DNA of 64,000 nt from Candidatus Peribacteraceae bacterium (GTDB lineage: Bacteria; Patescibacteriota; Gracilibacteria; Peribacterales; Peribacteraceae): the NCBI GenBank assembly GCA_028703445.1, contig JAQVMW010000007.1, positions 18,935 through 82,934 on the forward strand, in the 5' to 3' direction. The first letter of the stretch is position 1; every line of letters starts with the position of its first letter. A program made the translations under genes and the position numbers. Shown here one piece after another: positions 58,964 through 63,850 of the stretch. Under the pieces are notes generated by a model. It had not been told where the DNA came from. It did no database searches and was given only the letters and a program-made list of their open reading frames with translations.

Positions 58964-59257
58964 ATGGCGATTCCCCAAAAACATCTCCGGGATCTCTACG
59001 CGCTTTTTTCCTCTGTACGAAGCCAAGTGGAGGCGGAGAAGCTTCTTGCCGACATCCTCACGCCGCAGGAGCTCGCGTCGGTCGCGGAACGCTGGCAGCT
59101 GATTCAGGAGCTCAACAAGGGAACGCCCCAGCGGGATATCGCGAAGAGGCTCAATCTCAGTATCAGCAAGATCACGCGGGGATCGAGGATGCTGCAGTAC
59201 GGAAGCGGGGGATTTGGTCTTTTTCTGAAGAAATTGAAGAAGGCGAATCAGAAATAA
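58964..59257 (+). CDS. TrpR/YerC-YecD family transcriptional regulator
   Basis: LLADILTPQELASVAERWQLIQELNKGTPQRDIAKRLNLSISKITRGSRML. Confidence 0.88.
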   Translation: MAIPQKHLRDLYALFSSVRSQVEAEKLLADILTPQELASVAERWQLIQELNKGTPQRDIAKRLNLSISKITRGSRMLQYGSGGFGLFLKKLKKANQK

Positions 59258-59552
59258 TTCGAAGACTCCTTCTTTCCATCTTTGTCCGGCGACAAAAGAG
59301 GGTGTGTGTGGTCTTCTCGTTGAGAGTTGTTTGAGTCTGTTTCTTTTGTCAGAGGAGGAGGGAACCTTGTCCGGTTCCCTACCCCCTCCGACACCTCTCT
59401 TACCCTCCTGACGGCCAAGCTTAGGTGGGAAACCTGCGGGTTTCCCCCCACTTCCGTTCCCCCCTTCCAACCGGTTTTGTCCGTTGTTTTTGTGTTCTGT
59501 GAGCTGTTTTGTTCTTTTCTTTGAAAAGGGATTGATCAGGGAAGAGGGGTGG

Positions 59553-59572
59553 TGTACCGTTGTAACGGTACA
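59553..59572. promoter_or_regulatory. 20-bp palindromic operator, TrpR-box-like
   Basis: TGTACCGTT-GT-AACGGTACA, perfect 9-bp arms, 10 nt upstream of ATG at 59583. Confidence 0.7.
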
Positions 59573-61853: not shown

Positions 61854-61870
61854 TTTTCCTCATTATTCCC

Positions 61871-63850
61871 ATGGAACAATATTTCCCTTCTCCGGCCAGA
61901 TCCTTCTATCTCGACGTCAGAGGCGGCAGAGACGATGTACAGAGGAGACTGAACGCCTCGGTTCAAAGGATGCGGCTGGTCGCGACAGGACAAGAGAAAA
62001 TTCCACCGAAGCGCGATGCTGCACGTCTGTTCACTCCTGCTTCCGATCGGCTCAAACATGCCAAACTTGCCGAGCTCACGGAAGGCGGAGGCGTATACCG
62101 CATCGCCTCTTTCGCATCGGATTACGAGAGCAGAGATTCCGTTCCTGTCGTTCGGAACATCCTCCCTCGCCTTGGAGGAACAATCTATGAGGATCCGCAA
62201 GGTTACGGCGTATTCACACTGCCGGAGGAACCACCAATGGAATTCGATCCATCGGGACGTATCCGGAAAGCAAACAATGTTCTGTTGCATGGTGCTGACC
62301 TCCTCCATTACGTGGCATGTCATATACGGCAGGATCTGGCTGCCGTGTTGGTCAAGAGTGATGCGATGCGGTACATGGCTGACATTTCCGTGTTCGAGAA
62401 AACACCGAAAGACGCGCAGGGGAGGAACACGTTCATCGGGAAGGATCTCCTCGACTTTCATGCCAAAGCGCCAAATTTCGGTCCGGTCCTCCGTGAATTC
62501 TTCCCATTGCTGATGCAACTCTTCAGAAAAGATCTCTTGGATGTGTTGACGGTTGATTTGAACGGGCAGCAGCGCTATTCCCATGGTGAAGGAGGGGACG
62601 TGTGCCGCTTTGAGCGCGATCGGTTCATCCCGCTGCGGAGAGCGGATGCATCATTCATGGGCATTCTCGGGGTGGCGGATGCGTTCTTCCAGCACGAAGG
62701 GGAGCACAGCCCCTATGAGGGCGGGAACTTTGTGCGAGGGATCGAGATGCAATCTGACCTCGGGAGAAAGGAGGGAAAGACGAAGGAAATATTGAGGATC
62801 AACAAAACCCCGTATGCGGATATGTTGAGGAGGAATGCCATTCCGCACAGCGAAAGAATGCAGATTCTCCAGAGGCTCCTTTCTCAGAAGGAACGCTATT
62901 TCGACGCAGTCGTTGAGAGCGCTTCCCGCGTCAATCGTCTCGTGTTTGGAGATAAGCTAAAACTCTACGGTATCAGTTACATCTCTGACGAGTGCGTGAA
63001 TGATTGTCTGTACTGCGGCCATCGGGCGTCTTCCGTTCATCAGCGATCCGCGTTGACTCCGGAGCAGATGGCGGAAGATTTTTCCGCAGTGGTGCGGCAT
63101 CGGCCGGAGGAATTCTGCATTCTCGCGGGGGATCACCCACGTGCGGTGCAACGGTGCTGCGATGCCCTTCGTGTGTTGCGTTCGGTGAACGAGAAGTACA
63201 GATCTCCCCTGCAATGCGTCACGCTGAACATCGCGCCACAGACCCCGGAGGATTTTGAAAAGATCGTGGCGGCGGCGGATCCGGTAGTGCGCCTGCAGTA
63301 CCGCATCTTCCAGGAAACGTACGACCCTGCGCTCTACGAACAGTATCACGTCGCCGGTCCGAAGAGCGCATTCCATGACAGGATGACTGCGCAGGAGCGC
63401 GCACTGCAGGCAGGTTTTTCCGATGTTGGCATCGGGGCGCTCATGGGCCTCAATACTGCAGGGCATGATTTTGAGATTATTTCTCTCGTGCAGCATGCGG
63501 ATCGTATCAAGCAGATGTTTGGCAGATATCCCAAAAGTCTTTCCATACCGCGTCATCAACGTGTTGAAGGTTCCGATTTTACCACGCCCAATCCGCTCGA
63601 TGATCGGTCATATATTTACTACCACGCACTTCTGAGAATATTTCTGCCAGAGACGGAATTGATGATCACAAGCAGGGAAACTCCAGAGCTGATTCAAGCT
63701 CTTGAATCACTGGTGAATGTGAGAGACCTTGCTCCCCGTCCCGGCGTAGGCGGAAACATTTGTCCAAGCGTACATTTTCAAAATGAGCTTGGGGATTGTC
63801 GATCCGCAGAGGAAATTCTGGAGGATTTATCACATCGTGGAAAGAGGTGA
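61871..63850 (+). CDS. large radical SAM protein, ThiH/HydG/NosL-like C-terminal half with long unknown N-terminal region
   Basis: YGISYISDECVNDCLYCGHRAS (CX3CX2C), EEFCILAGDHP, C-terminal PRPGVGGNICPSVHFQNELGD. Confidence 0.85.
   Translation: MEQYFPSPARSFYLDVRGGRDDVQRRLNASVQRMRLVATGQEKIPPKRDAARLFTPASDRLKHAKLAELTEGGGVYRIASFASDYESRDSVPVVRNILPRLGGTIYEDPQGYGVFTLPEEPPMEFDPSGRIRKANNVLLHGADLLHYVACHIRQDLAAVLVKSDAMRYMADISVFEKTPKDAQGRNTFIGKDLLDFHAKAPNFGPVLREFFPLLMQLFRKDLLDVLTVDLNGQQRYSHGEGGDVCRFERDRFIPLRRADASFMGILGVADAFFQHEGEHSPYEGGNFVRGIEMQSDLGRKEGKTKEILRINKTPYADMLRRNAIPHSERMQILQRLLSQKERYFDAVVESASRVNRLVFGDKLKLYGISYISDECVNDCLYCGHRASSVHQRSALTPEQMAEDFSAVVRHRPEEFCILAGDHPRAVQRCCDALRVLRSVNEKYRSPLQCVTLNIAPQTPEDFEKIVAAADPVVRLQYRIFQETYDPALYEQYHVAGPKSAFHDRMTAQERALQAGFSDVGIGALMGLNTAGHDFEIISLVQHADRIKQMFGRYPKSLSIPRHQRVEGSDFTTPNPLDDRSYIYYHALLRIFLPETELMITSRETPELIQALESLVNVRDLAPRPGVGGNICPSVHFQNELGDCRSAEEILEDLSHRGKR

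What the first reader, a model, noticed from the sequence alone, without database searches (positions are those of the whole stretch)
58964..63850. TrpR-family regulator, TrpR-type palindrome, PhzE-like chorismate enzyme and radical SAM protein: candidate aromatic-derived metabolite locus in a CPR bacterium
The regulator at 58964 belongs to the TrpR/YerC group. 300 bp downstream TGTACCGTTGTAACGGTACA has the same 20-bp size and TGTAC..GTACA ends as TrpR operators. Behind it are an orphan 95-aa protein, a PhzE-like synthase (TVTGSPMGNACRVLKEYEPGSRGYY, fused amidotransferase) and a ThiH/HydG/NosL-like radical SAM enzyme. An SDR is divergent. CPR genomes usually lack chorismate metabolism, so a PhzE-like enzyme points to scavenged substrate or an unrecognised product.
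Basis: partly seen in the sequence, partly recalled or inferred. Interest (0 to 1): 0.87.

Follow-up and report, generated by a model that had tools for sequence, protein, structure and literature searches.

The report
Tryptophan-controlled PhzE-type enzyme in Peribacteria
A tiny, probably host-dependent bacterium keeps a tryptophan-type gene switch in front of a chorismate enzyme that related bacteria use to make tryptophan, although it has lost both the pathway that makes chorismate and the rest of the tryptophan pathway, so what the enzyme still does is an open, testable question.

Summary
The genes and the palindrome are real. The 628-aa synthase is a true PhzE-family protein (3r74, 453 bits over full length; best TrpE structure 89 bits). 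The palindrome is a conserved TrpR box: it occurs once in this 1.37-Mb genome, lies in front of phzE in relatives with trpR beside it, and lies in front of ordinary trpE/shikimate operons in others. The secondary-metabolite reading is not supported. In the same class, PhzE-type enzymes are the anthranilate-synthase part of complete trp operons (trpR, PhzE::TrpD::TrpC::TrpF, trpB, trpA). Most related loci add a leader ORF with Trp codons, and several a terminator. The 'orphan 95-aa protein' is best read as an expanded leader ORF; its only Trp is codon 91 of 95. The paradox is real: none of 11 PhzE genomes in the family has DHQ synthase or a full IGPS, and the four tested lack chorismate synthase and TrpB, yet phzE is under purifying selection. 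The radical-SAM protein is a separate, undescribed family (PAS-like domain plus ThiH-like core). In another lineage it sits behind trpR, a TrpR-type operator and an attenuator-like leader, without phzE beside it. Substrate, product and radical-SAM role remain unknown.

The parts
58964..59257 (+). trpR-family repressor gene (97 aa)
   Evidence: PF01371 72.8 bits; orthologues 74-91% identical at the same place in relatives. By alignment with E. coli TrpR from memory: T44, R54, R84, G85 kept; T81 is K and S88 is M.
59532..59537 (+). possible -35 element TTGATC, 15 nt before TGTACC; weak
   Evidence: Sequence; similar TTGAT/TTGC motifs lie 15-16 nt before the box in relatives. Promoter not tested.
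59553..59572 (.). TrpR box TGTACCGT|TGTAACGG|TACA (operator)
   Evidence: Only match in the genome; same box in front of phzE or trpE genes in relatives; reversed-pattern control gave one hit in 17 genomes, none in this one.
59583..59870 (+). 95-aa ORF, reinterpreted as an expanded Trp leader ORF (only Trp = codon 91, 59853-59855)
   Evidence: Replaced by unrelated ORFs in relatives, whose Trp codons likewise lie in the last seven codons; pN/pS 0.56 against G020.
59934..59940 (+). T run of a possible decayed attenuator before phzE
   Evidence: T run plus GTAT at the corresponding place in G001, G003, G020, G011, G030, G028; the hairpin in front of it is weak here (-7.5 kcal/mol).
59967..61853 (+). 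phzE-family gene: chorismate-binding domain followed by class-I glutamine amidotransferase, 628 aa
   Evidence: PF00425 and PF00117; full-length match to B. lata PhzE 3r74, E=1.7e-134; amidotransferase Cys-His-Glu and HTEY motif conserved.
61871..62770 (+). N-terminal PAS-like domain of the radical SAM protein (about residues 1-300)
   Evidence: AlphaFold model pLDDT 82; best fold match HODM alpha subunit 5lth, then PAS domains; a separate gene in G330 and G335.
62771..63850 (+). ThiH-like radical SAM core (CX3CX2C)
   Evidence: TIGR02351 177.6 bits, below its cut-off of 380; fold matches ThiH, HydG, NosL.

Best explanation
This is a tryptophan-responsive operon. TrpR, made from the gene in front, binds the box at 59553-59572 when tryptophan is plentiful and blocks transcription of leader ORF, phzE and radical SAM gene. 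The phzE product aminates chorismate with ammonia from glutamine, giving ADIC or anthranilate, as the same family must do inside trp operons of related bacteria. The 95-aa ORF is a leader whose last codons contain the Trp codon, left over from or still serving as an attenuator. Shown by comparison: box, trpR linkage, PhzE family, trp-operon relatives, missing shikimate and Trp steps. Inferred: tryptophan as ligand, anthranilate as product, chorismate taken from a host or neighbour, leader function in this species. The radical SAM protein is a second target of Trp-type control; its reaction is unknown, and for the control logic a role in getting or making an aromatic compound fits better than Trp breakdown.
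For: Box conserved in front of phzE in own, G001, G003, G020, G234, variants in G206, G224, G228, G225, G227, G221, while surrounding DNA differs. Same type of box in front of trpE operons in G027, G011, G030 and of trpR-trpE in G035. PhzE fused to TrpD-TrpC-TrpF behind trpR in G354 and G357, and trpC-D-F-phzE-B-A in G138. In G357 the promoter region of trpR and the operon has GTACTAGTGTACTAGTAC, 16 of 18 bases of E. coli trpO. WW leader ORFs plus terminators in front of trpE or phzE in G011, G027, G030, G025, G038, G225, G227: 10 of 15 hits of a scan over 979 kb lie at such Trp-locus positions. phzE pN/pS 0.18-0.23. No isochorismatase domain.
Against: The genome has no DHQ synthase, chorismate synthase, TrpB or IGPS, so neither substrate nor later steps are visible. 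The TrpE catalytic histidine is Tyr in all PhzE-type proteins compared, including those in trp operons, so pyruvate elimination to anthranilate is not assured. In this species the leader has one Trp only and a weak hairpin. TrpR scores below the NCBIfam TrpR equivalog cut-off. G002 and G004 keep trpR, box and leader ORF without phzE.
Confidence: 0.66

Rival explanations
1. The locus makes a secondary metabolite: PhzE makes ADIC from scavenged chorismate and the radical SAM enzyme converts it to an unknown product; TrpR was only recruited.
For: True PhzE family; HTEY in place of the TrpE histidine; phzE and radical SAM gene adjacent here and in G001, and probably on three further contigs with matching lengths; no Trp pathway left.
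Against: No PhzD-type isochorismatase domain and no other biosynthetic gene at the locus. G003 has phzE without a radical SAM gene; G339 has the radical SAM gene behind trpR without phzE next to it. The relatives' trp-operon setting and Trp leaders point to tryptophan metabolism.
Confidence: 0.17
2. The phzE gene is a relic of a lost trp pathway that is decaying and has no present function.
For: Shikimate and Trp genes are gone; sister species G002 and G004 have no phzE; the leader looks decayed.
Against: phzE intact in 11 family members, pN/pS about 0.2 across dS 0.6-1.5 in the four compared; amidotransferase triad and chorismate motifs intact.
Confidence: 0.1
3. The MAG is incomplete or the pathway uses unrelated enzymes, so chorismate and tryptophan are in fact made here.
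For: It is a MAG with 23 contigs.
Against: 98.75% complete; the same absences recur in all PhzE genomes of the family tested (DHQ synthase and IGPS in 11, chorismate synthase and TrpB in 4) while trpE relatives and most control genomes score.
Confidence: 0.07

Closest known systems
PhzE, ADIC synthase of phenazine biosynthesis (3r74)
   Same: Full-length similarity (40% identity), domain order, HTEY and TVTGSP motifs, amidotransferase triad
   Different: No phenazine genes seen; TrpR box; in the tree phenazine PhzE is a long branch inside a wider family that includes trp-operon enzymes
E. coli trp operon control (TrpR operator plus trpL attenuator)
   Same: TrpR family, GTAC-N10-GTAC operator with 8-bp spaced half sites, leader ORFs with Trp codons and terminators in relatives
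   Different: PhzE-type enzyme in place of TrpE/TrpG; leader ORFs of up to 179 codons; in G339 and G357 the 3' end of trpR itself carries the Trp codons; no trp genes left in this genome
ThiH, HydG, NosL aromatic amino acid lyases
   Same: Radical SAM core, CX3CX2C, fold
   Different: PAS-like N-terminal domain, below all NCBIfam cut-offs, no HydG C-terminal extension, own invariant C-terminal motif RDLAPxPGVGGN
HODM alpha subunit (5lth)
   Same: Remote fold similarity of the N-terminal domain (E 1.9e-5, TM about 0.46)
   Different: 10% identity; haem binding not shown

Membership tests
PhzE family (ADIC synthase) | Chorismate-binding domain followed by amidotransferase, best match PhzE over full length | tested here: met
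   452.9 bits, residues 37-650; next best 89 bits
PhzE family (ADIC synthase) | HTEY motif where TrpE has its catalytic His; TVTGSP | tested here: met
PhzE family (ADIC synthase) | Phenazine partner PhzD (isochorismatase) | tested here: not met
   no isochorismatase domain in the genome
PhzE family (ADIC synthase) | Makes ADIC from chorismate | not testable with these tools
   needs an enzyme assay
TrpE/TrpG anthranilate synthase (sequence family) | NCBIfam TrpE equivalog cut-off | tested here: not met
   best 197.7 bits against cut-off 645
TrpE/TrpG anthranilate synthase (by role) | Encoded with trpD, C, F, B, A | tested here: not met
   Not in this genome (IGPS and TrpB missing); met for the family members in G354, G357, G138
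TrpR | Pfam Trp_repressor above cut-off | tested here: met
   72.8 against 27 bits
TrpR | NCBIfam TrpR equivalog cut-off | tested here: not met
   52.5 against 67.25 bits
TrpR | Palindromic operator with GTAC-N10-GTAC, conserved in front of Trp genes | tested here: met
TrpR | Trp-binding residues | tested here: inconclusive
   with E. coli TrpR from memory: T44, R54, R84 kept; T81 is K, S88 is M
Trp attenuator | Leader ORF with Trp codons near its end | tested here: met
   single Trp at codon 91 of 95; WW in many relatives
Trp attenuator | Rho-independent terminator before the first gene with a competing structure | tested here: inconclusive
   weak hairpin here; clear hairpins in G027, G011, G225, G227, G028
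ThiH/HydG/NosL enzymes | CX3CX2C and common fold | tested here: met
ThiH/HydG/NosL enzymes | Score above the family cut-off of any of them | tested here: not met
   ThiH 177.6/380, HydG 132.3/312, NosL 48.4/400

The most novel reading that the evidence does not exclude
In bacteria without shikimate or classical Trp steps, a TrpR-controlled pair, PhzE plus a PAS-domain radical SAM enzyme, turns chorismate taken from a host into tryptophan or another needed aromatic compound by a route not yet described.
Probability: 0.12. Interest if true: 0.88.

Novelty: new variant of a known kind. Interest (0 to 1): 0.62.

Why it matters
It shows E. coli-like double control of tryptophan genes (TrpR operator and Trp-codon leader) in Patescibacteria, and a PhzE-type enzyme standing where TrpE/TrpG is expected. 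That bears on whether ADIC synthases and anthranilate synthases are cleanly separated families and on what the missing histidine does. It also poses a sharp question about dependence on a host: why keep a Trp-regulated chorismate enzyme when chorismate synthesis and the rest of the Trp pathway are gone. The PAS-radical SAM family under Trp control is a new enzyme to assay. I found no description of this in the open papers searched, which is a limited search.

Tried and rejected
Phenazine or other secondary metabolite cluster: no isochorismatase domain, no partner genes at the locus. Plain TrpE/TrpG: sequence is PhzE. Trp operon just beyond the window: the contig ends there, and in G001 and G003 pnp follows. 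SDR as part of the system: not at the locus in relatives. orf95 as a conserved protein: replaced by unrelated ORFs in G001 and G003. Rfam scan of eight related loci for a known Trp leader: only tRNAs. Pfam for the radical SAM N-terminal domain: nothing. The prephenate dehydratase of G020 was not found in the window or other fetched loci. A named genome scan for the radical SAM family gave only four loci. PhzF and TrpD were not searched for.

Full report
Setting. The window is the end of contig C14 (18935-82934 of 82934) of a 1.37-Mb MAG, 98.75% complete. The nearest named genomes are Peregrinibacteria CG1_02_54_53 and Ca. Peribacter.

The synthase. The protein matches Burkholderia lata PhzE (3r74) over its length at 453 bits, against 89 bits for the best TrpE structure, and misses every NCBIfam TrpE/PabB cut-off. 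It is the only chorismate-binding gene in the genome. The TrpE histidine of the HxxH motif is tyrosine (HTEY), as in PhzE; the amidotransferase Cys, His and Glu are kept. pN/pS is 0.18-0.22 against three relatives, so the gene is under selection.

The locus in relatives. rpsO - trpR - box - small ORF - phzE - (radical SAM gene) - pnp is the frame. G001 has all parts; G003 has pnp directly behind phzE; in G020 the contig ends behind phzE; G234 has phzE then pnp. G002 and G004 keep trpR, box and small ORF but have no phzE. G016 and G028 have a TrpG-TrpE fusion plus an amino acid racemase behind the same box; G016 and G234 are in one genus. In G221 box, phzE and trpR sit together at a different genomic place. 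The box pattern occurs at one place in this genome. Variants of the box precede phzE in G206, G224, G228, G225, G227 and trpE in G027, G011, G030, and trpR-trpE in G035. Read as TGTACNNN|TGTANNNN|TACA they show 8-bp spaced half sites; in G357 the site is TGTACTAG|TGTACTAG|TACA, 16 of 18 bases of the E. coli trpO core, and it lies in front of trpR and a trp operon.

Trp operons with PhzE. A scan of 361 genomes of the class finds the family in 30. In G354 and G357 trpR is followed by one protein with chorismate-binding, amidotransferase, TrpD, TrpC and TrpF domains, then trpB and trpA; in G138 (UGA read as Gly) the order is trpC, trpD, trpF, phzE, trpB, trpA. These keep the PhzE motifs. In the tree phenazine PhzE is a long branch inside the family; the rooted part is weakly supported and may suffer from long branches. 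So in this class the PhzE type serves as anthranilate synthase, by context; no activity has been shown.

Leader. Between box and gene, most loci have an ORF whose Trp codons lie near its end: WW in G027, G011, G030, G025, G225, G227, G224, G228, G234, G016, G038; single W in own, G020, G003, G001 and, read by eye, G002 and G004. Hairpin plus T run follows in G027, G011, G030, G028, G225, G227, G038. A scan for WW ORF plus terminator over 979 kb (both strands) gives 15 hits, 10 of them at Trp-locus positions. In G339 and G357 the WW codons are near the end of trpR itself, followed by a terminator. In this genome the ORF is 95 codons, Trp at codon 91, T run at 59934-59940, and the hairpin is weak (-7.5 kcal/mol), so attenuation here is possible but not shown. 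Lineages own/G020, G001 and G003/G002/G004 have long leader ORFs unrelated between the three groups, with the single Trp in the last seven codons in each.

Missing pathways. None of the 11 PhzE genomes of the family has DHQ synthase or a full-length IGPS match (one weak partial hit in G020); the four tested lack chorismate synthase and TrpB. Relatives with trpE operons score for them. Hence chorismate must come from outside, or the enzyme has another substrate. This is the unexplained part.

Radical SAM protein. It is a small family: 20 proteins of full-length type including the query in 5.8 billion proteins, then ordinary ThiH (only the 8000 best word-sharing candidates were scored). The model shows a ThiH/HydG/NosL-like core and an N-terminal PAS-like domain nearest HODM alpha, unknown to Pfam; in G330 and G335 the two halves are adjacent genes. 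In G339 it follows trpR, with TTGACA-N17-TACACT overlapping TGTACTAGTACA and a terminator between the genes. In G330 a TrpR-family gene is divergent. So its link to Trp control does not depend on phzE. Its dS between this genome and G001 is 0.29 against 0.93 for the adjacent phzE, which suggests later transfer or recombination. Its reaction is unknown.

Verdict. Observation confirmed; the secondary-metabolite interpretation is replaced by a tryptophan-controlled, PhzE-type chorismate enzyme retained after loss of the pathway around it.

Noticed in passing
L065 (reverse strand, trpR 7093-7419) and L093 (reverse strand, trpR 8728-9042): TrpR proteins in two different families end in WWRKLFWRS / WWQKLIWRA followed by a terminator: trpR itself appears to serve as the leader for the next gene (radical SAM gene in one, trp operon in the other).
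   Followed up: partly
window 61871-63850 compared with L068: Synonymous divergence of the radical SAM gene (0.29) is a third of that of the adjacent phzE (0.93): recent transfer or recombination.
   Followed up: partly
window 57458-58923: A 220-aa ORF without family match and the SDR lie between rpsO and trpR in this genome; no match at this place in G001, G003, G020.
   Followed up: no
L050 4023-4347: G008 has a box-like palindrome (1 mismatch) and an ORF ending in ...GGWG before a UDP-GlcNAc-epimerase-like gene, away from Trp genes.
   Followed up: no
L026 300-1208: G020 has a prephenate dehydratase-like gene (115 bits, below the cut-off of 219) although chorismate synthase and DHQ synthase are missing.
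   Followed up: no
L048 and L049: TrpG-TrpE fusion followed by an Asp/Glu-type amino acid racemase behind the same TrpR box in genomes that also lack chorismate synthase.
   Followed up: partly
G000:C3:31442-31681: A second TrpR-family gene in this genome; context not examined.
   Followed up: no
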